Below, piece by piece: positions 45,618-59,564 of a stretch of 64,000 bases of DNA; position 1 is the first letter of the stretch; each line of letters begins with the position of its first letter. The DNA comes from Thioalkalivibrio thiocyanodenitrificans ARhD 1. GTDB lineage: Bacteria; Pseudomonadota; Gammaproteobacteria; Ectothiorhodospirales; Ectothiorhodospiraceae. The DNA lies in assembly GCF_000378965.1 (NCBI RefSeq), contig NZ_KB900536.1, forward strand, positions 1,480,052 to 1,544,051, given 5' to 3'. The translations under genes and the position numbers were made by a program. The notes under the pieces are model-generated. The model made no database searches, had not been told where the DNA came from, and worked only from the letters and a program-made list of their open reading frames with translations.

Positions 45618-45628
45618 GAAATTCAAAG

Positions 45629-45974
45629 GGAGCCGGCCTGTAAGCCGGGTTCTGTCGGGGACAGTCATTCATCTGGGACGCGCGTCACCGCGCGCCTCAA
45701 GCAGCCTACCCGGGTGCGATGCGGGCCACACCGATGCACCCCTATTTGGCCTTGCTCCGGGTGGGGTTTGCCGTGCCGCGGCGTGTTGCCACCCGCGCGG
45801 TGCGCTCTTACCGCACCATTTCACCCTTACCTGTGCCCGAAGGCCATCGGCGGTATGTTTTCTGTGGCACTTTCCGTCGGCTCGCGCCGCCCAGGCGTTA
45901 CCTGGCACCCTGCCCTGCGGAGCCCGGACTTTCCTCGACGGCGCAAGCACCGCCGCGACTGTCCGGCCGACTCC
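45629..45974 (-). ncRNA. rnpB: RNase P RNA (class A)
   Basis: About 346 nt. On the minus strand the 5' end reads GGAGTCGGCCGGACAGTCGC. The universal block GAGGAAAGTCCGGGCTCC follows, then GGCAGGGTGCCAGGTAACGC, GGTAAGGGTGAAATGGTGCG, GGAGCAAGGCCAAATAGGGG, GATGAATGACTGTCC and the 3' end ACAGAACCCGGCTTA. These are the conserved regions of bacterial type A RNase P RNA, the ribozyme that matures tRNA 5' ends. Its place near mraZ and rsmI matches pseudomonads. Ends are estimated to a few bases. Confidence 0.97.
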
Positions 45975-46010: not shown

Positions 46011-46217
46011 GAGGCTGTTGGAAACAGGGAGGGAGAACCGCGCATCGAAGAGAACCGCTATCACTGGGCGCGCAACGGAAGGCCTGGCCCCTGCGTGCGA
46101 CACCCCGCCGCATCTCTGGCATTTCATTGACCGGGGTCATGCCCGGACGCAGTGGCACTGTTAACCTGATCACAAGAAAGAGACTCAATCTCCGAAAGGG
46201 AAACTCCAGGTGGCCAC

Positions 46218-46475
46218 ATGAGTATCGGGATACTCGTCCTATTCAGCGTCTGGCTCGCCCTGTTCATCTCCATCGCGTGGGGATTCCTGGCCCGTGTGCG
46301 CCATAGCAGGCGCGTTCACGCCCAGGCAACCCGTTGCGTCGAGGCGCTGAGGGCTCAGCGCCGCGTGCTCGATTGCCTGCAATGCCCCGAACGGGCGACC
46401 TGCGCGGAGGCTCATCTGCCCAACCACTCGCCCTGGCCCGAGGACGACTGCCCGCTGCGGTCACGCGGTGCTTAG
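46218..46475 (+). CDS. Small single-pass membrane protein with Cys-rich tail
   Basis: 85 residues. An N-terminal membrane helix (ILVLFSVWLALFISIAWGFL, about 5-24) is followed by a basic stretch and a tail with CVEALRAQRRVLDCLQCPER, then TCAEA and DDCPL. Five cysteines could bind metal or form disulfides. AGGTGG precedes the ATG. No family is recognised. Codon use looks like the surrounding genes and the signal-anchor pattern is convincing, but a gene this short could still be spurious. Confidence 0.55.
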   Translation: MSIGILVLFSVWLALFISIAWGFLARVRHSRRVHAQATRCVEALRAQRRVLDCLQCPERATCAEAHLPNHSPWPEDDCPLRSRGA

Positions 46476-46557
46476 ATCAGCCGCGGCGGCGAGCGATGCC
46501 GGGGAGTCGGACCGGAACAGACCTCCGCCTGGATCAGAAAAACACCATCAGAACCGT

Positions 46558-46705
46558 CAACAGTCTGTTGTGAAAGTCTCCGGTGGATGCCAGGCAAGGC
46601 GCAAAGCAAGCAACAGCGCAGCGCAGCGCACAGGTGGGTACACGGGCATGCTGGACGTTTTCCAACGCAGCATGGCGCCAGCCGAGAGTCATTCAACAGC
46701 CTGTC
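46558..46705. repeat. MITE-like element with CAACAG-type ends
   Basis: The left end has the palindrome CAACAGTCTGTTG followed by TGAAAGTCTCCGG. The right end, read inverted, is GACAGGCTGTTGAATGA followed by CTCTCGG. The interior contains GATGCCAGGCAAGGCGCAAA, a motif recalled from dispersed non-coding repeats of beta/gammaproteobacteria. No protein is encoded. A partial copy of the end (GAGGCTGTTGGAAAC) lies at 46011-46025 by the rnpB promoter. Confidence 0.5.
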
Positions 46706-46757
46706 AAAGGGAACGGAGTGTGAAGCCTACACCCCCCCGGCCCTTTTCCTACCTTCT

Positions 46758-48413
46758 TCAGGCGGGTGCGGGCGGCCGTAAACCAAGCTGCTCGTCACCT
46801 GCCTCATGCACCTTGACACAGTTGCGACCCGCATCCTTGGCGCGGTACAGGGCAGCGTCTGCCGCAGCGATCAGGCGCTCGGGGCTCAATGCGTCGTGCG
46901 GCACCCGGGTGGCCACACCGACGCTGACCGTGACATGAGGCATGGGTTGCCCTTCGCACGCCTCCAGGTTCAGTCGGGACGCCATTTCGCGGACACGTTC
47001 CGCGACGGCTCTCGCACCGTGCGCGCCGGTATCGGGCAGAACCACGACGAACTCCTCGCCGCCGAAACGCGCCGGCAAGTCCCCCGGCCGCTGCACGGCC
47101 GAGTGGAGCACGGCCGCCAACTGCCGCAGACACTGGTCCCCGGCCAGGTGTCCGTAAAGGTCGTTGTGCCGCTTGAAATGGTCGATGTCCACCATGAGCA
47201 GGCTCAAGGGCATTTCCTGGCGTTCGCAGCGGGCCCATTCCCGGGCCAGTACCTCCTTGAAGTGCCGGTGGTTGGCGAGCCCGGTCAGGCCGTCCTTGAC
47301 GGACATTTCCTGGAGCACCCGGTTGGATTGCTCGAGTGCGCCGGCGAGTTCCACCAGTTGCGTCTGTGAGTGACTCAGCCTGCGATTGATGCGCATGATG
47401 TAGCCTGCTGCCCCGATAACCATGACCAGCAGTCCGAACAGCAGCAGGAGCCAGTGCCAGTAGTGGCGCAGCAGGGTCTCCAGATCGACGCGGTCCAGGT
47501 CCGCATAGGGGCCGATACGCAGTTCCCGCAGCAGCTCGTGCACCGGCGTGTAATCCAGCGGCATGGTCCAGCCGGCGGACTGGCTGGCGCGCGCCTCCGG
47601 GCTGTCCGGCGCGAGCTGCAGCAGCGCCACGCCCACCTGGTGGGCAAGCTGTTCCGGAACGTGCGCACTGCGCGCGAAGGCCCATTCCGGATACAGCCGC
47701 GTGCTGAGCAGGAAGGGAAAGCCCGTCACCTGCCTGCGATTGATCACCTTGAACCGTTCCATGTGCACCACCCCTTCGGCGGCCATGCGCTCCAGGGTGT
47801 CCGTACGCACGGTACCCGCATCCACTTCGCCCGCGGCGACGGCCAGCACGATCTGGTCCTGGGGCAGACCGACGTACTCGATGCGGGTGAAATCCCGCTC
47901 GGGACGGATGCCGGCCTCACGGAACTCGCGCAAGGCCATCAGATAACCCCCGAAGGCGTCTGCGCGCACCGCCATGACTGACCTGCCGCGCAGATCCCGG
48001 AGGGTTTCGATGTCATCGCGGTCCGCACGCGTGAAGATAACCGCGCCGAACTGTGTATGGACACCATCATCGCGCAGGTTGCGCAGGGTGAGGATGCGCG
48101 TCACACCGTACGTTGCCTCGAGTATCGCGTAGGAACCAGGATTGGTGATGACGAAATCCACCGTGCCGGCGGCCATGGCCTCGTCCAGGGAGATATTGTT
48201 GAGGGGAACAACACGAAACTCCCGCCCCGGCACGGCGCGGGTAAGGTACTCTGCGGTAGGTGTCCATGCCCGCACCGCCGCCTCCGGGCCGCGATGGGCC
48301 AGCACGCCGATACGCACCTCCTCGCCTGATTTTGCTTCGTCCCCAGAGGCCGTCAGTGGCAACAACGCCATGACAGCCAGGAGAATTGTCCTGCGCACTG
48401 ACTGCACACGCAC
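46758..48413 (-). CDS. PhnD-like periplasmic binding domain fused to GGDEF diguanylate cyclase
   Basis: 551 residues from GTG. A signal segment (about 8-24) is followed by a PhnD/SsuA-type solute-binding domain (about 30-285) with IGVLAHRGPEAAVRAWTPTA and DFVITNPGSYAILEATYGVT. One membrane helix (WHWLLLLFGLLVMVIGAAGY, about 320-340) leads to a short coiled coil and a GGDEF domain: KDGLTGLANHRHF, VDIDHFKRHND, and the active site GGEEF preceded at the right spacing by the I-site RPGD. It should make cyclic di-GMP in response to a periplasmic ligand, possibly phosphonate/phosphite-like or an anion; the ligand is unknown. Confidence 0.9.
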   Translation of the reverse strand: MRVQSVRRTILLAVMALLPLTASGDEAKSGEEVRIGVLAHRGPEAAVRAWTPTAEYLTRAVPGREFRVVPLNNISLDEAMAAGTVDFVITNPGSYAILEATYGVTRILTLRNLRDDGVHTQFGAVIFTRADRDDIETLRDLRGRSVMAVRADAFGGYLMALREFREAGIRPERDFTRIEYVGLPQDQIVLAVAAGEVDAGTVRTDTLERMAAEGVVHMERFKVINRRQVTGFPFLLSTRLYPEWAFARSAHVPEQLAHQVGVALLQLAPDSPEARASQSAGWTMPLDYTPVHELLRELRIGPYADLDRVDLETLLRHYWHWLLLLFGLLVMVIGAAGYIMRINRRLSHSQTQLVELAGALEQSNRVLQEMSVKDGLTGLANHRHFKEVLAREWARCERQEMPLSLLMVDIDHFKRHNDLYGHLAGDQCLRQLAAVLHSAVQRPGDLPARFGGEEFVVVLPDTGAHGARAVAERVREMASRLNLEACEGQPMPHVTVSVGVATRVPHDALSPERLIAAADAALYRAKDAGRNCVKVHEAGDEQLGLRPPAPA

Positions 48414-49116
48414 CCCTGCTCTGCGCGCGCCCGCTCATGGTCATTCCGATGCGGGCCAGCGCGTTCTTCTTGTTTGTCCGCGTGGGCAATGGCGGTCGTC
48501 GTCCCTGTGTCGGGCGGCGCACACCTTGAACTCCCCACGCCATACTATCCGCAAACGCGGGGTACGCCACTCTTTCCCACAACCCTCTTAAGGAATAATC
48601 CTGATACAGACGACCGCGCAGCAGAGGGCGCTCGGGTGGGTCGCCCCGGGTTCTTCCCAGACTTCACGGACACATCGATCAAGCCTCACACTGAGCGCGG
48701 ATGTGTGTCATGGCAGGTAGAAGACCATTCTCACCGGAGTTCAAGCGGGATCCGGTCCGGACTGGTGCGATCCGAATCGCGCGTTGCCGAGCCGCCTTCC
48801 CGATTCGACGGATCGGTACGTACCTGAAGGTCTCGCCCAGTGGGTAACTACGGCTGGCGTGAGCGAGTGCCGGGAGTGCCACGCCTCCTCAGTATGCGCG
48901 TGGTCCCCGCGGACCGAACCATGTTGCCCGGGTGATGCGGATCAACGCAATTCAGGGTGCCCCGCCGCGGGCACGGTGGCGCATCCGGCATTTGTCTCAA
49001 TGTTGCACACCTTCAATCAATCATTCCGAAGCACGACACCGATGTGGAAAAAGAGGCGGTATGATCATCTGCCGGATACCCCTTGTGTCGGGTAATTACC
49101 AAACTTGTACATACAC
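48414..49116. other. Gene-poor spacer in the accessory block
   Basis: About 700 bp without an intact gene. 48710-48985 contains fragments of an IS3-family element (separate entry). 48414-48700 shows no recognisable coding, RNA or repeat structure. From about 49080 the GC content drops into the next gene. Confidence 0.6.
48710..48985 (+). pseudogene. Degenerate IS3-family transposase remnant (OrfA start joined to OrfB piece)
   Basis: ATG at 48710 reads MAGRRPFSPEFKRD, the OrfA N-terminus of IS3-type elements, then decays. In another frame near 48810, DRYVPEGLAQWVTTAGVSE resembles the OrfA helix-turn-helix. From 48920 HVARVMRINAIQGAPPRAR resembles an early OrfB segment (VARLMR...). Frame changes and missing parts show a deleted, non-functional copy. 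It marks past IS activity beside the low-GC operon end. Confidence 0.55.
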
Positions 49117-49872
49117 TCATTGGTCACCAACACCGTTTGCTTTGCTCAATACTTCCATTACTTCATCATCAAAAATATAAGCCATTGACCAGACAAGCTT
49201 CCTTTCAAACGTCTTCCCCTCCCATGAGCCACTTCTAAAGCGAATGACCACGACGTCCTCGTCAAAAGACACCTCCCAATCACCGGGGTCACACCCGAAC
49301 ATACCATTCAGCTTCTCGACGACTTCAGCGGTCTCCCTCCCCCCGTATTCGGCACCGGCTCCAGAACATAAGCGAACCCGCCGACAAGCGCTCCCAGGAA
49401 CGTCTCTCCACACTGTTACCGATGCAAGCCTCCGCATATACCTTGGATTAAATCCACCAAAGCGCCGAACGACGGTCCTCCCACACACGACATCTTCACG
49501 CGTCCCTCGTGGACTTGGCCAATAATCAAGCAGAGGTCTATCAATTGACACCTCAATGCTCGAACTATCAAAAGACCCACGGATCTTTCCGCCCACATGA
49601 CTTACCTTCCACCCAGCCGCTCTGACCGTTCGTTCCACATCTGACTTTAGGAACAAACATAGACGCCACGTCACCGTGACAAAAGCAAGCGCCACCAGAA
49701 TCAACGCGGCGTCACGATGGCCAACCATTTTAGGAGTGGATGGATGATCAGGAAGGAACCAGTTCTGGACCGAGACAACAAATATTAAAATAGACCCAAT
49801 CGCCAGAATATATGAAACATACCAAGTCACCGCGAGCGCGCTCGGCGGAGCATCGTATCTACAAAGACCCAT
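49117..49872 (-). CDS. Two-helix membrane protein, candidate immunity/partner of the upstream gene
   Basis: 251 residues from ATG 49872, where AAGAAGG lies 6 bases upstream; it overlaps the end of the preceding gene by 14 bp. Two membrane segments (about 14-40, TWYVSYILAIGSILIFVVSV, and about 54-75, ALILVALAFVTVTWRLCLFL) precede a soluble domain of about 170 residues (GGKIRGSFDSSSIEVSIDRP and onward). No family is recognised. GC is far below the chromosomal genes (near 48% by eye), like the last part of the preceding gene, so both look acquired together. As the last gene of the operon after a variable C-terminus, it fits an immunity protein; this is inference only. Confidence 0.75.
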   Translation of the reverse strand: MGLCRYDAPPSALAVTWYVSYILAIGSILIFVVSVQNWFLPDHPSTPKMVGHRDAALILVALAFVTVTWRLCLFLKSDVERTVRAAGWKVSHVGGKIRGSFDSSSIEVSIDRPLLDYWPSPRGTREDVVCGRTVVRRFGGFNPRYMRRLASVTVWRDVPGSACRRVRLCSGAGAEYGGRETAEVVEKLNGMFGCDPGDWEVSFDEDVVVIRFRSGSWEGKTFERKLVWSMAYIFDDEVMEVLSKANGVGDQ

Positions 49873-50350
49873 GTAACGCCTTCTTGCCAATCGAGGCTAT
49901 TCTGTTGGCCTCCAGTTTCGAGGCCGCATAGAGTTTACCATTCAGCACGCCATACATAATTCGATCAAATTCGGAGAAAATTGCACCAAGAATCCAGTTC
50001 TTAAGTATTGAGATCACGAATGCGACTAATAGAGCAACAAATATGGCGACGAGGATCGGAGACGCGAATCCAGACAAGAAACCAAAGGCTATTGCACCCA
50101 AATAACCCGAAAGGACGGTCAAGGCCAAATCAATTGCCCCCGCACCAAGCGCGCTCCATGGATTTCCGGTAGCCGAGTACGTTAAGTATGCAGTTAGCAT
50201 AGCACTGAGCCCTGCTAACACATTACTAACGTCTTTAATTGCTGTGACATAATGGGCAAGAGCGACGCCAGCCTTAGCGAGAAAGCTGGCAAGATCAGCA
50301 ACCACACTCAGTATGGATAGACCGGCGCTTGCAAGGTCAGTCTCAGAATA
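49859..50350 (-). other. Low-GC C-terminal module of the transglutaminase-fold gene
   Basis: Codons 882-1044. GC falls from the mid-60s to under 50% within a few codons after the Gly-rich motif. It encodes hydrophobic stretches such as VLAGLSAMLTAYLTYSA and ASPILVAIFVALLVAFVISI. Sharp composition break at a domain boundary, continuing into the next gene, suggests recombination of a C-terminal module plus partner. Confidence 0.6.
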
Positions 50351-52993
50351 CGAACCATTCCCTCCACCCCCAATCTTCCAGGCCCCCGCTCCAGTCTCCG
50401 CATCAAAGATCACATACCCGGCCCCGCTCCACCCCGGCACGCTGACGGGGTCGGTGTGCACGATCACTTCCTTGCCCACCGCCAGTGCCGCGCGGATCTC
50501 GTTCATGGTCAGGCTGTTCTGACGGATGTGCGGCAACGCCTCGGCCTGGTTGGCCGGGGTAATATGATAGATGCGCTGGCCCTGTTGGGAAGCCTTCTGC
50601 AGCGCCTTGACCGCCGAGACCGCCTCGCCGGGGTTCTCGGGCGTCACGAACATCTGCTCGGGTACGGCGTGCTCCAGGGCGGAACTCAAGGCACCCAGCT
50701 GGAAGTTGAAGTTCTTCCAGGTCTCATGGCCCTGCCCGTCGACGCTCGAGACGTGCGCCACCCGGTCCAGGTCCATCTCCACGCCGCCGGGGGTGATGCT
50801 TCTCGGAATACCGAAGAAGTAGGTGACGTTCGGCACGTAGCCGTAGGTACCGACCGAGGTGGCCAGCTGGAAGTGGCTCTGCTGCGTCAGGGCGGACAGA
50901 TGCCCCAGGGCCAGATACTGGGCGAAGTAGCCCAGCAGCCCCGCGTGGAACATGTCTCCCAGCAGCTCTTCTCTTGTCAGGCCCTCAAGCAGTGCCTCAT
51001 TCTCGGATTCGAGGATGTCCCGGGTCTGTTCCAGGCGCGTCTGCGCCTCTTCCAGGCTGCCTACCGCCACGCTGCCGCCGATCACGCCCACCGCCAGGTA
51101 GGAACCGGCCACCACCTTGTTGGGGTAGTGGCGGGTGCCGTGCACGGGGTCCCGGACGCTGTAGCGGAATGCGAGTTCCTCGCCCAGGCTCATGGGCGAG
51201 CCGGTGAGTACGGTTTCCCCTTTCACCTTGAGCTCGGGCACCACCTGGATGAGATAGGCCGGGATGCTGGAGGGCAGCTGGCTGATGTTGATGTCGGTGA
51301 TCTCGCCCTCGGGCAGCAGCGCAATAAGGGCATCTTCATCGGCCTGGGTCGCGGGGCGGAACGAGAGGGTGATGCGCGCATTGTTGACCTGGGCCCAGGG
51401 GAAGCTGGTCTGGGCCAGGGGATCACCCAGGATGTCGGCTCCGAGGCCGAAGCTGATGCGCGGCTGCAGCGCCTGGGGCAGGACCGCGTAGCGCACGCCT
51501 TCAACAGCCCGCGGATAGGGCAGTCCGCTCGGCAGGATGGGCTCCTCCCGCACAATGACCTTTCGACCGCCGATGACCTCGCCCACGGTGGGTTCGTGCA
51601 TCTGTCCGATGCACGCCTCCAGCGCCTGACGGGCATCCTCCTGGGCTGCCTCAAGCAGGGTGGAATCAAGCCCCTGGACCCAACCCTCGGATTCGTTGAC
51701 GGCACCGCTTTGTAAAAATCTGTCGGTCAGGGCTTGGGCGTCGATCCCGGCGATGGCCGCCACGTCCAGGCCTTCCAGGAATTCGTATTGCTTGAAGCTC
51801 GCATCCAGGGCAAGCCAGGTGTCGGCGCCGCGCATCACCGCGCCCCGCGAGGGCAGGAAGTCGATGGCCGCCTCGGCCCAGACATGCTCCATGCGCACAT
51901 GGGTCACACGGCCGCCCTGGATGAGCCCGGTCACCGGGATGCCTCCGGAGGCGGCATAGTCCATGGCCTCCTCGATACTCTCGAAACCACCCGCCCAGTT
52001 GCGGAACCTGTCCTCGGGCACCTCGATGGTGCCGTGGACATAGCGGGCGGGCACGTCAGAGGCCCGCAGCAGGGCCACCAGCAACCCGGCGATGTCCATG
52101 GCGTTGCCTCGTTGCGCCGACAGCGTCAGGTCGCTGTCCTGCACGGCGCCCCAGGTGGGCAGCCATTCGACGTTGTTGCGCACCCAGTGGTAGATCTCCA
52201 CCGGCTGGTGATTCAGTTCCGCCGCCTTTGCGCGGATCTCCGGACTGAGCCGGATCTCGATGGTTTCATCCAGGTAGGCCGGATCATCGGCACCGGGAAG
52301 CAGATCGTAGGTGTAGCCTTCCAGGCCCGCCCATTGCGCCAGCGGATTGTCCAGGAGCCCCGCGCCCAGAAAGCCGTCCCGGCCTTCCCGCGGCAGATTG
52401 TCCGGGTTGGGCCGCTGGGGGCCGTGGGGCAGCTGCTGCGGGTCGAAGGGATGCTGGGATCGCTCGAGTTGTCGCGCTGAGAGACGCCGTTCGGCGCGTT
52501 CGATGCGATCGCGCAGTTCGCCTTCCGATTCGATGGTTTCGATGCCGGTGAGGTCCTCAAGGAGGGATCTCATTTCCTCCCGGTAGGCGGCGACCGTTTC
52601 GTGATGCCGGGCGACGATTTCCCCGGGCACAGCGCGCTCCCGCAGACGGGCCTCGATCCCGTCGAACTCGTGCAGGATGCCCTGGTCCAGGGCGGCGATC
52701 TGGCGGCGCAGGTCGGCGAGTGCCCGGCGTTCTTCGGCGATGGCCCGGCCCTGGCCGATACCGCGTTCAGCGGAGCGCAACACCTCTCGGGCCTCACGAA
52801 GCGAGGCCGCCAGGCGTTCCCCCTTGGTCGGGGCCCTGACGCGCTCTTCCTGGTGCCCGTGCGAATCGGCATGTAACGCCGCGGCCAACGGTTGGGTGAT
52901 CAACATGGTGAATGCAACGATCACCACCATCGCGACCGTTCGACAAAAGAGGGTGTGCCGGAAGATCAATGGAAAACCTGCTGTGGTACACAT
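49859..52993 (-). CDS. Secreted transglutaminase-fold protein with variable hydrophobic C-terminus
   Basis: 1044 residues. Signal segment about 17-40; coiled coils about 50-180; a transglutaminase-like core about 255-400 with PVEIYHWVRNNVEWLPTWGA, then GNAMDIAGLLVALLRASDVP and ARYVHG, HVWAEAAIDF (His) and WLALDASFKQYEF (Asp). The position of the catalytic Cys (4 before the Ala of DIAG) is Ala, so it is probably inactive. A large middle region of unknown fold follows. At 853-882 the motif PGWSGAGYVIFDAETGAGAW and a Gly-rich GGGGNGSY precede about 160 hydrophobic residues (several membrane helices) encoded in low-GC DNA. Such proteins are known next to RHS-type toxin genes. Here the C-terminus itself looks like an exchanged module. 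Starts 42 bases after the 1211-residue gene. Confidence 0.88.
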   Translation of the reverse strand: MCTTAGFPLIFRHTLFCRTVAMVVIVAFTMLITQPLAAALHADSHGHQEERVRAPTKGERLAASLREAREVLRSAERGIGQGRAIAEERRALADLRRQIAALDQGILHEFDGIEARLRERAVPGEIVARHHETVAAYREEMRSLLEDLTGIETIESEGELRDRIERAERRLSARQLERSQHPFDPQQLPHGPQRPNPDNLPREGRDGFLGAGLLDNPLAQWAGLEGYTYDLLPGADDPAYLDETIEIRLSPEIRAKAAELNHQPVEIYHWVRNNVEWLPTWGAVQDSDLTLSAQRGNAMDIAGLLVALLRASDVPARYVHGTIEVPEDRFRNWAGGFESIEEAMDYAASGGIPVTGLIQGGRVTHVRMEHVWAEAAIDFLPSRGAVMRGADTWLALDASFKQYEFLEGLDVAAIAGIDAQALTDRFLQSGAVNESEGWVQGLDSTLLEAAQEDARQALEACIGQMHEPTVGEVIGGRKVIVREEPILPSGLPYPRAVEGVRYAVLPQALQPRISFGLGADILGDPLAQTSFPWAQVNNARITLSFRPATQADEDALIALLPEGEITDINISQLPSSIPAYLIQVVPELKVKGETVLTGSPMSLGEELAFRYSVRDPVHGTRHYPNKVVAGSYLAVGVIGGSVAVGSLEEAQTRLEQTRDILESENEALLEGLTREELLGDMFHAGLLGYFAQYLALGHLSALTQQSHFQLATSVGTYGYVPNVTYFFGIPRSITPGGVEMDLDRVAHVSSVDGQGHETWKNFNFQLGALSSALEHAVPEQMFVTPENPGEAVSAVKALQKASQQGQRIYHITPANQAEALPHIRQNSLTMNEIRAALAVGKEVIVHTDPVSVPGWSGAGYVIFDAETGAGAWKIGGGGNGSYSETDLASAGLSILSVVADLASFLAKAGVALAHYVTAIKDVSNVLAGLSAMLTAYLTYSATGNPWSALGAGAIDLALTVLSGYLGAIAFGFLSGFASPILVAIFVALLVAFVISILKNWILGAIFSEFDRIMYGVLNGKLYAASKLEANRIASIGKKALHGSL

Positions 52994-53035
52994 CGAAGTC
53001 GATCCCTCGAAAAAACCGTTTATTCCGTTCAGAAC

Positions 53036-56000
53036 TCAGATCTCGCCGGAGATCCCGCGAATCAGCCAGGAGAGGGCTTCGCGCAACTGGCGCGCCTCCG
53101 GCTCGTGAATACGCGCTAGCCAGTCCGCCACCTTCAAGAGATGGAACACGGCCTTCTCCGGATCGCCACGCTCATGGAAGGAGTAGGCTTGGTCCAACTT
53201 CTCGAGGGCCCGCCCATAGTCCGCGTGGAACTCCAACCGGCCCAGAAGCCCAACCCGTACCTCATCGAACGATGGCGGCGACGAAACCTGGAAGCGGTGT
53301 CGGCTGGTGCCGTATTCCACCAGGCTCACCCCCTCGCGCAGTTCGATTTTTGCGCTGACCCAGGCATCCTCGACGTCGTCCGGCAGCAACCACCAGAACA
53401 CCCGCTCCAGTTCCTCGCCGGCTGCAAACTCAAGGTCGAACACCACGGTGTACGGATCAAGCGGAACGCCCACCCCAGGATCAAGAAGCACCCCGTCGGC
53501 CGTCTCCAGGGTCAGGCGAACGGATGCCAGGTCGCCCCGGTTGAGGATCCGCCAGTGGACCGGAACGGCCATCCCGGCGCGATGCAAACCTGGTGCTGGC
53601 TGGACGTGTTCAAGGGCATCAAGCAACAGCCGGGCAAAGACGCCCTCCGCGCCCTGCGCGTGGGCCTGTGCCAGCATGTCGAATCCGGCAATCACGGCCC
53701 TACCGGAACCGAACTGATGAACCGCCATGGCCGTGCCATCCTGTGGCCGACCCCGGGGCACCCTGTACTCGGCCACCGGCACGGCACCCACAAGTCGAAG
53801 CGCCAGGGACCACTCACTGTCCGGGAAGCCCGCCTCCGGCACATCGATCGGCGCGCCTGCGACCGGCTCGATACCGGTCGCCTCCGGCAACATGCCTACG
53901 ATCCGGACCCCGAACACGTCCAGAGAATCGCCGTCCATCATCAACTGCTGATTACGATGATCCCGGCCACCGGCCATGACGATGCCTGCGCCCCCGTAGA
54001 TCGCTTCGCGAAGCTCGCGCTCCACCTGCGGCTTGAGGGCCACATCGGACGAAAGCAGCAGGTAGGCGCTGTAGCCACCACTCCGCAGTTCTCGTGCAAA
54101 AGCATCACGGTCGGTCACGATGGTGTGGAACCAGCCCGCATCCCGGAGCAGGGACGTCAGAAAATCACGCTGTTCGGCGACTCCATCAGCTGACAACGGA
54201 TGTACGCCTGCAAAGGTGAACGCACCCAACTCCATGCCCGTCTCGGGATAATCGCCACACGCCGTCTCGACAAGACCGGTGTCAAACTCCCGCACGGTTC
54301 CATCCTCCTGCTGAACGGTGGCCAGCAATCGAACATGGCCTGTGAGCGCTTCACCGGCCTCGGATGCCTCCACAAGCAGCCGGATACCATTCACCGTGAG
54401 GGCCTGGATGCCGAGATTGGCCTCCTGCCCGGGATTCCGGTCAACGGGGAAGCCGTCTCCGATGCGAGCGGTCTCCGTGTCGAGCAGGAGCCCTGATCCA
54501 TCAAAGAGACTCACCTGCAAGGTGTCACCATGAATCAACCCGCCGGGCGGCATCAGATCCCACTGCATTCCGCCGACGCCTTCACACTGCTCCCTGCGCG
54601 GCGCGTCCATCAGGACCAGAAGCCGTCCACGCCCACCCAACGCAGGTGTTGATAGGAATTTCTCCTCCACACCAACGGCGGCATGGTCAAGGACCCGAAC
54701 CTCTCCCTGGATCTCCGCACTGAGTACGGCCATCAACACAGTGCCCGCCGGTTCGAGCGCCGACCAGGAGCCCGTCAGGCTGGCGACGCCGTCACGGGGA
54801 AGGTCCAAGGTCTTCGACCAGCTGGCCAGCTCCTGTTCGTTCTCCGGATCCAGCAACGTGAGGGTCACCGGCAGATCCACCAAGGCATCATTGCCGTGGT
54901 TGCTCAGCCGGGCTTCCAGGTACAGGGATTCGCTGCGCAACACGGGATCGGGCGTAGCCGAAACGCTGCCGGAAAGACCTGCACCCGTTTCACTGGTGGA
55001 CAACACCCCGAACTCGGTACTGGTGACGGCACGGGACACCCCTTCGGCATCACGAACCGTCAGGACAACCTGATAAACGCCTGCCGGCGCGGACCCCAAT
55101 GGCATGGACCGAACCATGTCCTGTTGGCTGCCCGGCATCAGCGTACGCAGTGCCAGTTCGTCACTCCACATCGGACTGCCGGCAACATCCAGCACCTGCA
55201 GACTCGCCGTATAGCCCTCCAACTGCAGGTTCGGTGCGGTATTGCGGAAGCGGGCGGTAATCACCACCGTCTCCAGGGGCGCGTAGACCGCCTGATCCGT
55301 ATTCACCGAGGCGCCGAGCCCGGTGTCCTGCGGCGCATCGATTCTGAACGCCGAGACCACTTCGTGGCTGGATCCACCGTCCTCCTCAATCAACCGCAGC
55401 ACGACCTCGTAGTCGCCAGCGTAAAGTCCCGAGGTATCGATCAGGCGCGGCGTCACGGAGACGAGCGCACCGGCCGCCACGGCCAGGGCATCGATGCCGG
55501 GCAGAACCGCCACCACGGCGCCGGCGCCATCCCGAACCTCGATGGTGGCGGTAGCTGTTGCGTCCACGGCATCGAGGTTGGCGATCTCGACAGAGACACT
55601 CACCGCTTCCCCGGGGAGATAGCTGCTCTTGTCCGTGGACAACGCGATGTCAAAGCCCGAAGGCAGAACGTCAACACCCTGGGGGCCCAGGAGGCGGGTA
55701 TGCTCACGGCCTGTGAGATCGGTGTAGGTGATCACCACCTGGTCCACAACAGGCCGATGTTCCCCGGGCTGCGGATCCATGACGGTCACACCGAAATCGA
55801 GATCCTCGAGACGCCCTATGGTGAACGTTTCGAAGGACCACTCGATCTCGATGCGGTCCGCAAAGGTTTCCACCCGTTCCGGAGAGACAGCAAACGAGTC
55901 CGGATCCAGCTCGATGCCCTCACTCGACAGCGTGGCAATGACAGTGACATTCCGATAATCCGGGTCACCATCGATGGGTTGACCGCCGACCATGACCCCA

Positions 56001-56671
56001 TCGAATGCCAGGCCTGATTGATAGCGCGTATCCCTCCAGTTGACCACGCCAAGCTCCAGGACGTAGTTTCCGATCTCAGGAAACACGTAGCCGGAATGAA
56101 CCCACCCGGTGTAGCCGCACCCACTGCTGTAACAACGCCCTGAATCCGTCCCGAGCGGACTCCACGCCGGGCCACCCCGGATGATCTCCACGCTCTCGGG
56201 CGTGAGTTGTGCCTCCACCTCCGGCATACCGAAACCGGGCACGATGTTGCCCGTCGAGCGGGTACGTGCAGTGAACAACAGGGCGACCTGTTCCATGGAC
56301 TCATCCAGAACCCGGGCCCATGCGTAATCGGCATATCCCCCGCCGTCGGTCGTCACATAGTTGAAGTAGAAGGCCAGCTCCTCCCCGGACTCTGCGGAGA
56401 ACAGCGGGGAGCGCAGGCGAGAGCCATTGGTCCCCCCGATTCCAGGCAAGGTGGCGCCACGAAAGCTGCTCCCGGTGGTTGCCACCCAGCCGTACTGGGC
56501 CGCCCCCGTGGGCGACAGGGTGACCACCCCGTCCTCCGGGGAAGTGCCGCAGTTCCCCTCGCAGGTCCAACCGCTTGGGATCCCGTTCTCGAATCCGGCG
56601 CCCGGAACAGCGGCCGAGAGGCACGCGAGCAAGCCCAGCAACGCGATGCGCATCCATACGGATCGTGTCAT
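53036..56671 (-). CDS. Large secreted protein with CARDB-like repeats and Rossmann-like domain
   Basis: 1211 residues. Signal peptide 1-25. An N-terminal beta-rich domain (about 25-215) has paired Cys (CEGNCG and CYSSGCGY) and resembles surface-anchored jelly-roll modules. Several CARDB/Ig-like beta-sandwiches follow (about 340-650), each opening like STDKSSYLPGEAVSVSVEIA or VNTDQAVYAPLETVVITARF. A region near 835-1000 (YSAYLLLSSDVALKPQVERE, AGIVMAGGRDHRNQQLMMDG, GSGRAVIAGFDMLAQ) looks like a glutamine-amidotransferase-like Rossmann fold without an obvious catalytic triad. The end is a short helical hairpin. Its ATG overlaps the stop of the upstream gene (ATGA). Function unknown; a surface or periplasmic scaffold is likely. 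Confidence 0.85.
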   Translation of the reverse strand: MTRSVWMRIALLGLLACLSAAVPGAGFENGIPSGWTCEGNCGTSPEDGVVTLSPTGAAQYGWVATTGSSFRGATLPGIGGTNGSRLRSPLFSAESGEELAFYFNYVTTDGGGYADYAWARVLDESMEQVALLFTARTRSTGNIVPGFGMPEVEAQLTPESVEIIRGGPAWSPLGTDSGRCYSSGCGYTGWVHSGYVFPEIGNYVLELGVVNWRDTRYQSGLAFDGVMVGGQPIDGDPDYRNVTVIATLSSEGIELDPDSFAVSPERVETFADRIEIEWSFETFTIGRLEDLDFGVTVMDPQPGEHRPVVDQVVITYTDLTGREHTRLLGPQGVDVLPSGFDIALSTDKSSYLPGEAVSVSVEIANLDAVDATATATIEVRDGAGAVVAVLPGIDALAVAAGALVSVTPRLIDTSGLYAGDYEVVLRLIEEDGGSSHEVVSAFRIDAPQDTGLGASVNTDQAVYAPLETVVITARFRNTAPNLQLEGYTASLQVLDVAGSPMWSDELALRTLMPGSQQDMVRSMPLGSAPAGVYQVVLTVRDAEGVSRAVTSTEFGVLSTSETGAGLSGSVSATPDPVLRSESLYLEARLSNHGNDALVDLPVTLTLLDPENEQELASWSKTLDLPRDGVASLTGSWSALEPAGTVLMAVLSAEIQGEVRVLDHAAVGVEEKFLSTPALGGRGRLLVLMDAPRREQCEGVGGMQWDLMPPGGLIHGDTLQVSLFDGSGLLLDTETARIGDGFPVDRNPGQEANLGIQALTVNGIRLLVEASEAGEALTGHVRLLATVQQEDGTVREFDTGLVETACGDYPETGMELGAFTFAGVHPLSADGVAEQRDFLTSLLRDAGWFHTIVTDRDAFARELRSGGYSAYLLLSSDVALKPQVERELREAIYGGAGIVMAGGRDHRNQQLMMDGDSLDVFGVRIVGMLPEATGIEPVAGAPIDVPEAGFPDSEWSLALRLVGAVPVAEYRVPRGRPQDGTAMAVHQFGSGRAVIAGFDMLAQAHAQGAEGVFARLLLDALEHVQPAPGLHRAGMAVPVHWRILNRGDLASVRLTLETADGVLLDPGVGVPLDPYTVVFDLEFAAGEELERVFWWLLPDDVEDAWVSAKIELREGVSLVEYGTSRHRFQVSSPPSFDEVRVGLLGRLEFHADYGRALEKLDQAYSFHERGDPEKAVFHLLKVADWLARIHEPEARQLREALSWLIRGISGEI

Positions 56672-59400
56672 GGGGAGTCCTCCACGCCTTCTATGCGCAG
56701 TCTTATGCGTACGCCCTTGCTTTCGCCCGGGGTGATACTTTCGGGTTCCGCTCCCAGGTGACCCTCAATCCGGATGTTCGGCGGCACGATCAGGTCGTCG
56801 GTACGCACTGAGCTCACGGTCATGCCCAGCACGTTCACGACTTGAATCGGGTAAGAACCGGCCTCTTCAAACGCTTGGGTGATCGTCCCCAAAGAGACAA
56901 GACTGGAGGATGCGGCAGCCATGACCGGGATGTGCGCGTCACCCTGATGTACCACGTTTCCATCAGGGTCAATCAAGGCATAGTCAAAGGTCAGCTCGGA
57001 GTCGACGTTCGAGAGGTTTTCCAAACTCGCCAGGAACTCGACCTCCACCTCCTCACCCCTGATCACCTGGGTCGGAACGGTATGGATACCCAGCGAGCGC
57101 AGACGGCTGGTTTCCACCACACGGATGAGCACCATCTCTTCGGACAAGAGAACGTCCCGATGCTCCGTGAGGACTTGCACATTTATGCGGTAATCCCCGG
57201 GCGGCCAGTTTCCGGGTGACCAGGTGAATTCACGGGTCACCAATTCGCCCGGATCGATGTCGAATCGTGCGTCACGAGGACCTCCCGGGACCGGGATCAC
57301 GAAGTCCTCACGCAGGTCGTTATTGATCCCCAGCACGGTCGCCGCCATCACCACCCGCTGACTCTCATCCCCTTCGTTCTCGACCTCCGCCGAGACCAGC
57401 ACCTCATCGAAGGCCTCATAAGCCACGCGATCCTTGACCACGCGCACAATTCCTATGCCATCCGTAGCGGCCTTCTGCAGCGGGATATCCAGACGAACGA
57501 CACCATGCTGCTGGAGGACGAAACCATTGGATCCCGAGAGATAACCAACCGCGCTCGCGGACACCTCGAACGCCAGCGATTCTATGTCCGTGATCTGGTA
57601 TTGCCCGCTCTCATCGGTCGAAGAGGACAAGCCACCCACTGTCACGGTCGCCCCGGCAACCGCTAGATCCGTCTCCACGTCATAGACGCGCCCGTGCAGC
57701 GTGGTGGCAGGATCCGGGAGCGGAATCAGGTGCAACGTGCCGATGGTCACCTGGGATCCGGGAACGGCAACCAGATTCACCGCAACGGATTGGTAGCCTT
57801 CCCGGGTAACATGCAGCACGAGTTCCCCGGCTTCCAGATCACCAAGGACGAATACGCCTGCACCATCAGTGGCGGCCGCTGCCGTCCCATCCTTGAGCGT
57901 GACCGATACACCTTCCATGGCAAGACCGGTATCCACGTCCACGATGGTCCCGGTGATCGAGACCGGCCCATCCGGCACCTGGCCATCATCCGGATGCAGC
58001 GCAGGGGAGAATTCCACCCGCTGCCCCGCCTGCACCGTCGCGGTTGCATTGACCGAATGGTATCCCGGGGCAACCACCTGAATGTGCACCAAACCCGGCG
58101 ACACCGTTACCGCGTAACGGCCATCCATGCCTGTCGAGACCGACACATCGGCATCACCACTGAACCCGATTGTTGCTGTCACGGGCGAGCCGGTGCCAGC
58201 ATCGCTCAGGCGTCCGGAGATCAGCGCGGTTTGAGGAGCAGCGGGAAGGCGCACCGCTCCCAGATCCAGGAACTGACCGGCCTGCAGGGAAATCGACTGG
58301 ACGTACCCCGCGTATCCGGCGGCACCGTAACTTACGGTGTACCCTTGCGGCTCCAGGTCCTCGAGTGTGAACCGTCCGTCCGTTCCGGTGGGAAGGGTTA
58401 TGCTCGAACCATCGTCACCCGCGGCAGTGACCATCACCCCATTGAGCGGCACCCCAGTGGAGTCATCAAGAACCCGGCCACCGATCGCCGCCAGCCTCGG
58501 TACCGGCGGACTTGTGACGGCTCGCGGCGCCTCGATTGCGCGCAAGGCCAAAGCCGTGGCCAACACACTGCCATCCCAGGATCCGTTCGCACCCTGCCTT
58601 GCGAGCAGCTGATTCAGCGCAGCATCGTATCTGGACGTGTCCGTGGTGAGGGGTATCAGGGCCAGAAGGGCTTCGGCGCTTTCCCAGATCTCCCCCCAGA
58701 GCCCCTGCTCCTGATTGTTCCAGAGAAAGTCTGCGGCACGCTGCAATGGCGCAGACAGGTTGTAGTCAAAGCGGTGGGGTTGAAGAACCGACAGCGCACG
58801 GGATGTCAGATAGAAAGACGGGAGACTCACAGAAGTGGCCGAGAAAGAACCGTCGGCATGCTGGCGTTGCAGCAGGTAGGCAATGGAAGGTTGAATCACG
58901 GCCCCGCTTGCGACTCCCGCAACCGCCAAGGCTTCCAGCGCGTCAAGTGTATCCAGAACACTGCTCTGATCACCCGGACGTCCGCCAAAACCGCCGTCCT
59001 CGTTCTGATGGATGAGCACTGCCTCGACTTCATCAGAACCGGACTGCCCTGCCAGTCTTCGCGCGATCAGCACACGGGACAGGTACGGCAAGGCGCCGTC
59101 CACGCTGGCCGCATCAAGGTATCCCAGCCCGCCTGCCTGCGCGGACTCCGAACCCCGCCCCGGGAGACGAAGCGCACGCAGGGATTCGCTGGTGGAGTGA
59201 TACGGGAGACTCTCGTCAGAGGACGACGCGAATCGCCCATCGTCATGCTGTTGATGCAACAGCCACTCCACCGCGGCCTCGTTCCCCTTTGCGGGAGAAG
59301 CCAGCACGGCGCAGACAATGAGAGGGAAGAATACGGCGCCAGAAATGATGCGCCAGCAGAAATGCCCATCCGGCAATCGTGATCGAGCAGCCATGCTCAT
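56668..59400 (-). CDS. Secreted alpha/alpha-toroid protein with carboxypeptidase-regulatory-like repeats
   Basis: 910 residues. Signal/anchor about 15-40. Residues 42-290 hold squalene-cyclase/prenyltransferase-type toroid repeats with the pattern Q-x-x-x-DG-x-F/W: LLHQQHDDGRF, LIHQNEDGGFGG, LLQRQHADGSF, LLARQGANGSWDG. Then four beta-sandwich repeats of the carboxypeptidase regulatory type (about 305-645), each with G-x-V-x-D...T-D-x-x-G-x-F/Y (TGTDGRFTLEDLEPQGYTVS, STDESGQYQITDIES). Two more Ig-like domains end the protein. No cyclase DxDD motif is seen, so an enzyme role is unlikely; the toroid resembles the binding/thioester-type domain used in alpha-2-macroglobulin relatives. First gene of the operon. 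Confidence 0.87.
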   Translation of the reverse strand: MSMAARSRLPDGHFCWRIISGAVFFPLIVCAVLASPAKGNEAAVEWLLHQQHDDGRFASSSDESLPYHSTSESLRALRLPGRGSESAQAGGLGYLDAASVDGALPYLSRVLIARRLAGQSGSDEVEAVLIHQNEDGGFGGRPGDQSSVLDTLDALEALAVAGVASGAVIQPSIAYLLQRQHADGSFSATSVSLPSFYLTSRALSVLQPHRFDYNLSAPLQRAADFLWNNQEQGLWGEIWESAEALLALIPLTTDTSRYDAALNQLLARQGANGSWDGSVLATALALRAIEAPRAVTSPPVPRLAAIGGRVLDDSTGVPLNGVMVTAAGDDGSSITLPTGTDGRFTLEDLEPQGYTVSYGAAGYAGYVQSISLQAGQFLDLGAVRLPAAPQTALISGRLSDAGTGSPVTATIGFSGDADVSVSTGMDGRYAVTVSPGLVHIQVVAPGYHSVNATATVQAGQRVEFSPALHPDDGQVPDGPVSITGTIVDVDTGLAMEGVSVTLKDGTAAAATDGAGVFVLGDLEAGELVLHVTREGYQSVAVNLVAVPGSQVTIGTLHLIPLPDPATTLHGRVYDVETDLAVAGATVTVGGLSSSTDESGQYQITDIESLAFEVSASAVGYLSGSNGFVLQQHGVVRLDIPLQKAATDGIGIVRVVKDRVAYEAFDEVLVSAEVENEGDESQRVVMAATVLGINNDLREDFVIPVPGGPRDARFDIDPGELVTREFTWSPGNWPPGDYRINVQVLTEHRDVLLSEEMVLIRVVETSRLRSLGIHTVPTQVIRGEEVEVEFLASLENLSNVDSELTFDYALIDPDGNVVHQGDAHIPVMAAASSSLVSLGTITQAFEEAGSYPIQVVNVLGMTVSSVRTDDLIVPPNIRIEGHLGAEPESITPGESKGVRIRLRIEGVEDSP

Positions 59401-59430
59401 GTCCCTTGATCCACTCCTTGGATGCGCCTT

Positions 59431-59459
59431 TTTATATCATGCAGGGTACGTGGTCGCAA
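59431..59459 (-). promoter_or_regulatory. Promoter of the secreted-protein operon
   Basis: TTGCGA (59459-59454) and TATAAA (59436-59431) with a 17-bp spacer on the minus strand, about 30 bases before the 910-residue gene. The four genes downstream are overlapped or closely spaced, so one transcript is likely. Confidence 0.7.
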
Positions 59460-59564
59460 CCTTGCAAGCATTCACCCCGACCGACGCGGATCGGGAAGGG
59501 CCACGCCCTCCAACCCTGTCCTTCCGACCACCACTCTGCGTGCACCGATGGACGAATGACCCCT

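What the first reader, a model, noticed from the sequence alone, without database searches (positions are those of the whole stretch)
49117..59459. Four-gene operon of giant secreted proteins without a recognised role
A promoter at 59431-59459 precedes four co-directional genes: toroid plus carboxypeptidase-regulatory repeats (910 aa), CARDB-like plus Rossmann-like (1211 aa), pseudo-transglutaminase (1044 aa), small membrane protein (251 aa). The first two overlap by ATGA, the second and third are 42 bases apart, the third and fourth overlap. Three have signal peptides. The set combines a complement-like toroid, adhesive beta-sandwiches and a transglutaminase fold, which suggests one extracellular assembly. 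I know of no named system with this composition.
Basis: partly seen in the sequence, partly recalled or inferred. Interest (0 to 1): 0.75.

Follow-up and report, generated by a model that had tools for sequence, protein, structure and literature searches.

The report
Polymorphic toxin operon with swappable tips
Four linked genes in a sulfur-oxidising bacterium look like a secreted weapon against competing bacteria: two large surface proteins, a carrier protein whose toxic tip is swapped between strains, and a matching small antidote gene; the toxin class is known, but this three-part carrier appears not to have been described.

Summary
The genes are real and placed as described. The role is recognisable. 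The third gene (C) is an RHS-free variant of the 'inactive transglutaminase' polymorphic toxins (Zhang et al. 2012, PMC3482391), and the fourth (D) is its predicted immunity gene. In a relative, C is 93% identical up to the codons for KIGGGGNG; after that, both the tail and the next small gene are unrelated. Across 28 copies, identity falls from 43% before this junction to 13% after it (shuffled control 12%). Other copies end in a NucA/NucB DNase followed by a SUKH immunity gene, in DUF6310, or run into a pretoxin-HINT domain. One genome has tandem cassettes 97.5% identical in DNA up to the junction with different tails. All 24 membrane tails are followed by a small gene with predicted TM helices. 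Every full-length C read lacks the transglutaminase Cys. Genes A (toroid plus carboxypeptidase-regulatory repeats) and B (beta-sandwich domains) travel with C across genera: A-B-C in at least eight genomes, A and B fused in at least two of these. I find no description of this partnership. They probably form the surface part that displays or delivers C (inferred). The window's own toxin is probably membrane-active. New variant of a known kind.

The parts
56668..59400 (-). Gene A, 910 aa: N-terminal hydrophobic signal, alpha-alpha toroid (Prenyltrans), four carboxypeptidase-regulatory beta-sandwich repeats, further beta domains
   Evidence: linked to B/C in relatives
53036..56671 (-). Gene B, 1211 aa: signal or lipoprotein-like N-terminus, NF038132 domain (res 34-228), MG2/CARDB-like beta domains, possible Rossmann-like domain (inference), helical C-terminus
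   Evidence: ATGA overlap with A; fused to A in L037 and L035 and in other relatives
49859..52993 (-). Gene C, 1044 aa: polymorphic toxin carrier
51803..52249 (-). Transglutaminase-like core of C (res 249-397); catalytic Cys replaced by Ala at res 298 (RGNAMD), His and Asp kept
   Evidence: Pfam E=9.3e-13; motif in ten copies
50351..51094 (-). Conserved pre-toxin module of C (res about 634-881)
   Evidence: alignment A1 and genome scans
50354..50425 (-). Junction motif GAGYVIFDAETGAGAWKIGGGGNG; last conserved residues before the variable tail
49862..50353 (-). Variable C-terminal tail of C (164 aa, hydrophobic, 3 predicted TM segments, 48% G+C): predicted membrane-active toxin domain
49117..49872 (-). 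Gene D, 251 aa, 2 predicted TM segments, 51% G+C: predicted cognate immunity protein
50355..59420 (-). Block of 87.8% DNA identity shared with L031; starts 20 bp before A and ends at the junction motif, so tail and D are excluded
46023..59545 (.). 13.5 kb island between rsmI and rnpB carrying the operon; a close relative has only about 390 bp there

Best explanation
The operon is a secreted polymorphic toxin system. C is the toxin carrier: a Sec signal, a catalytically dead transglutaminase domain, a conserved pre-toxin module ending in a Gly-rich junction, and a swappable C-terminal toxin. In this genome the toxin is a hydrophobic helical tail, probably one that inserts into and permeabilises the inner membrane of a rival cell. 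D is the matching two-TM immunity protein, which would block the toxin in the producer's own membrane. A and B are long secreted toroid/Ig-like proteins that probably form the surface or extracellular part that displays C or brings it to the target. The tail-immunity pair is exchanged as a low-G+C cassette by recombination in the conserved core. Shown by sequence: the junction, polymorphism, pairing, tandem cassettes, dead active site and A-B-C linkage. Inferred: secretion, toxicity, immunity by D, membrane-permeabilising action, and the role of A and B.
For: Sharp junction against L031: C 92.8% identical to the motif, then unrelated tail and next gene. In 28 copies identity is 43% before and 13% after the junction; shuffled control 12%. 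Known toxin parts at the same place: DNase_NucA_NucB E=3e-13 with adjacent SUKH gene E=6e-9, a pairing listed by PMC3482391; DUF6310 E=9e-13; pretoxin HINT E=1.7e-8 in the next frame of L152. Tail and next gene are co-inherited: L031/L046/L160, two L147 copies, and L147/L148 (Fisher p=1.4e-4). 24 of 24 membrane tails have a TM-bearing next gene; 5 of 7 soluble-ending tails have a TM-free one. Tandem truncated copies: L033 cassettes 97.5% identical in DNA over 1805 bp, then different tails; L147 has five modules in a row. G+C: C core 66%, tail 48%, D 51%; in L031 66/48/41%. Larger homologues are transglutaminase + DUF6531 + RHS toxins. Cys absent in all ten full-length copies with a readable motif. 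A and C co-occur in 9 of 11 A-bearing genomes against a 19/274 background (p=2e-10); B and C in 6 of 8 (p=1e-6).
Against: No toxicity or immunity has been measured. The window's own tail and D match no family, and their pairing is not seen elsewhere; D was searched only in plasmids. The AlphaFold2 model of C is unusable (mean pLDDT 33.5), so the membrane-active idea rests on hydrophobicity alone. A and B may have another role; in G170 only an A-like protein precedes C.
Confidence: 0.85

Rival explanations
1. A surface adhesin or extracellular matrix assembly: A, B and C are adhesive structural proteins, and the variable tail is only a membrane anchor or an antigenically variable tip.
For: A and B are rich in beta-sandwich repeats, C has a dead transglutaminase fold, and the tails in most copies are hydrophobic.
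Against: An anchor needs no DNase with a SUKH gene, no DUF6310 and no HINT. It does not explain a co-varying next gene or truncated tandem copies that lack the N-terminus.
Confidence: 0.07
2. The C/D pair is a polymorphic toxin-immunity module, but A and B are unrelated surface proteins that hitch-hike on the same island.
For: Truncated copies and some C genes stand without A/B; G170 has only an A-like gene before C; RHS-type homologues work without A/B.
Against: A-B-C order is kept at 30-65% identity across genera and different chromosomal sites; A and B are fused in several; overlaps are kept.
Confidence: 0.25
3. The system is aimed at eukaryotic predators or hosts rather than at rival bacteria.
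For: Large secreted modular proteins can serve either use (general knowledge; no tool result here supports it).
Against: A dedicated immunity gene next to each tail is the mark of toxins that would harm the producer's own kind; PMC3482391 links missing immunity genes with distant targets.
Confidence: 0.05

Closest known systems
Inactive-transglutaminase polymorphic toxins (Zhang et al. 2012, PMC3482391)
   Same: N-terminal signal, transglutaminase domain without the catalytic Cys, variable C-terminal toxins, immunity genes; homologous transglutaminase and pre-toxin parts
   Different: The paper says these domains are always followed by RHS repeats. C has no RHS repeats and its gene is preceded by the A and B genes.
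Rhs / WapA-type toxins (DUF6531, RHS repeats)
   Same: Swappable toxin after a conserved junction; tandem orphan cassettes
   Different: No RHS repeats or DUF6531 in window C
CdiA/CdiB contact-dependent inhibition
   Same: Toxin tip plus immunity gene, orphan cassettes (own knowledge)
   Different: No Pfam match to filamentous haemagglutinin repeats in A, B or C, and no CdiB-type neighbour in the operon
Streptomyces umbrella toxin particles (PMC11062931)
   Same: Polymorphic toxin secreted together with other large proteins as a complex (works-like analogy only, from the abstract)
   Different: No homology was tested or claimed

Membership tests
Polymorphic toxin systems | Conserved N-terminal part with sharply variable C-terminal domain | tested here: met
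   43% vs 13% identity across the junction in 28 copies; L031 comparison
Polymorphic toxin systems | Known toxin domains at the C-terminus in some members | tested here: met
   NucA/NucB DNase, DUF6310, HINT in the next frame of L152; window's own tail unmatched
Polymorphic toxin systems | Cognate immunity gene directly downstream | tested here: met
   SUKH after NucA/NucB; co-inherited pairs and matching TM type; for window D itself by position and type only
Polymorphic toxin systems | Standalone toxin cassettes nearby | tested here: met
   G019 and G737 tandem truncated copies; none in the window genome
Polymorphic toxin systems | Toxicity and specific immunity in cells | not testable with these tools
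   needs experiment
Inactive-transglutaminase toxins (Zhang 2012) | Transglutaminase domain with lost catalytic residue behind a signal peptide | tested here: met
   Cys to Ala or Ser in all ten readable full-length copies; signal judged by eye
Inactive-transglutaminase toxins (Zhang 2012) | RHS repeats after the transglutaminase | tested here: not met
   No RHS or DUF6531 match in window C, L034, L037 or L005; hence filed as a variant, not as a member
CDI (CdiA/CdiB) | Two-partner secretion domain and CdiB porin gene | tested here: not met
   No such match in A-D

The most novel reading that the evidence does not exclude
A, B and C together form a new multi-protein delivery apparatus for polymorphic toxins, independent of RHS cages and CdiB, in which a toroid/Ig-like surface complex replaces the RHS shell and mostly carries membrane-active toxins with membrane immunity proteins.
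Probability: 0.4. Interest if true: 0.75.

Novelty: new variant of a known kind. Interest (0 to 1): 0.6.

Why it matters
It assigns a role to genes that would be annotated as large secreted proteins of unknown function in a scattered set of gammaproteobacteria, and gives about 30 untested tail-immunity pairs, most of them membrane-type, matching no Pfam family where scanned. It also offers a test case for how toxins lacking RHS cages, CdiB or type VI parts leave the cell: delete A or B and ask whether killing is lost.

Tried and rejected
PADLOC: no matches. Viral contigs: no relatives of the pre-toxin module. Plasmids: only RHS-type transglutaminase toxins match C; none match B or D. Solved structures: one weak transglutaminase match for C and none for the L034 tail, so the ADP-ribosyltransferase look of that tail is by eye only. 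AlphaFold2 on C with two sequences: mean pLDDT 33.5, not used; no fold search made. The second structure job was not used because only window and L031 sequences were allowed and would have been as shallow. Promoter and terminator scans were at chance level. Considered and dropped: CDI (no CdiB or haemagglutinin match), anti-phage defence (no PADLOC match). T6SS cargo is judged unlikely because of the apparent Sec signals; the genome was not searched for T6SS genes.

Full report
Observation. Pfam finds in A the Prenyltrans toroid and four carboxypeptidase-regulatory repeats. In B it finds only a sub-threshold MG2 match. In C it finds a transglutaminase core, and in D nothing. NCBIfam adds the NF038132 domain at the start of B. 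The window genome holds a single C gene and no other copy of its pre-toxin module.

What C is. The closest named relative, Thioalkalivibrio sulfidiphilus ALJ17 (L031), has the same operon at another chromosomal place, after rlmB instead of rsmI. DNA identity is 87.8% from 20 bp before A to the codons for KIGGGGNG in C, and stops there. Behind that point the two C proteins end in unrelated hydrophobic tails of 164 and about 100 residues, and the next small genes are unrelated too. G+C falls from 66% in the C core to 48% in the tail and 51% in D; in L031 the values are 66, 48 and 41%.

A class-wide scan found C relatives in 19 of 274 genomes, and a profile of the pre-toxin module found more. I tabulated 31 tails with their next gene. 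In the 28 copies with enough sequence, the 60 residues before the junction are 43% identical on average and the 60 after it 13%, equal to a shuffled control of 12%.

Tails of known type settle the class. In L037 the tail is a NucA/NucB DNase (E=3e-13) and the next gene a SUKH protein (E=6e-9); this pairing is listed in PMC3482391. L005 carries DUF6310. In L152 the frame after the junction is broken and the following frame holds a pretoxin HINT domain. In G019 two tandem truncated copies share 97.5% DNA identity over 1805 bp up to the junction and then differ; G737 has five modules in a row. Similar tails have similar next genes more often than other pairs (Fisher p=1.4e-4). That count treats pairs as independent, which they are not, and in L147 some similar tails have unlike neighbours. 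Membrane tails are followed by TM-bearing genes in 24 of 24 cases, and soluble-ending tails by TM-free genes in 5 of 7. TM calls are a simple hydropathy count, and the next gene was picked by a fixed rule (longest ORF starting close to the stop), with one alternative frame chosen by hand.

Dead transglutaminase. The motif reads RGNAMD or similar, with Ala or Ser for the catalytic Cys, in all ten full-length copies where it could be read; His and Asp are kept. Larger homologues are transglutaminase + DUF6531 + RHS proteins. Zhang et al. described inactive transglutaminases in polymorphic toxins as always followed by RHS repeats and proposed that they anchor the toxin at the surface. C lacks RHS repeats, so I file it as a variant.

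A and B. A-B-C runs together in the window, L031, L033, L150 and three fragmented assemblies L177-L179. A and B are fused into one frame before C in L037 and L035. Fused A-B frames also reach contig ends in G205 and G101. In L151 the order is C, small gene, A. In the class sample 9 of 11 genomes with A also have C (p=2e-10), and 6 of 8 with B (p=1e-6); these tests ignore phylogeny, and the cut-offs for A and B were chosen after seeing the hits. The ATGA overlap is kept in L177. I found no paper describing such partners, within an open-access library only.

Context. The operon sits in a 13.5 kb stretch between rsmI and rnpB; the nearest relative, 92-94% identical in the flanks, has about 390 bp there. 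Only 5 of 47 genomes of the family carry the module. RsmI is 73% and RlmB 83% identical between the two species while C is 93%, which fits horizontal exchange but is not proof.

Mechanism. Shown: carrier, junction, variable tails, paired neighbours, linkage. Inferred: Sec export of A, B and C; display or delivery by A and B; insertion of the window tail into the target's inner membrane; neutralisation by D in the producer's membrane. The structure model of C failed, so the membrane-active reading rests on hydrophobicity and on D's two predicted TM segments.

Noticed in passing
L031 13883-14431: A REP-associated-type transposase-like protein (read by eye from the translation) lies directly after the immunity gene in T. 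sulfidiphilus ALJ17.
   Followed up: no
L177 (end 11279), L179 (start 1): Two assemblies break within a few bases of the toxin junction (GGANGGF), as expected if the core is followed by different tails in the sampled population or in several copies.
   Followed up: partly
window 46758-48413: A periplasmic-binding plus GGDEF-type protein (by eye) lies in the same 13.5 kb rsmI-rnpB island.
   Followed up: no
L181 1852-3579: Another same-genus genome has a different 575-aa ORF in the rsmI-rnpB interval, so the site may be an insertion hotspot.
   Followed up: no
window 45625-45974: RNase P RNA (class A), Rfam 336.7 bits.
   Followed up: yes
L034 18383-18967: Tail of the second C copy resembles ADP-ribosyltransferase toxins by eye; no Pfam or PDB match.
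   Followed up: partly
L037 6939-13133: The fused A-B protein (2064 aa) also contains a von Willebrand A domain and CARDB.
   Followed up: partly
L032 10001-10648: The NF038132 domain of B occurs alone in Thioalkalivibrio sp. ALJ16, 53% identical, with no further match to B.
   Followed up: no
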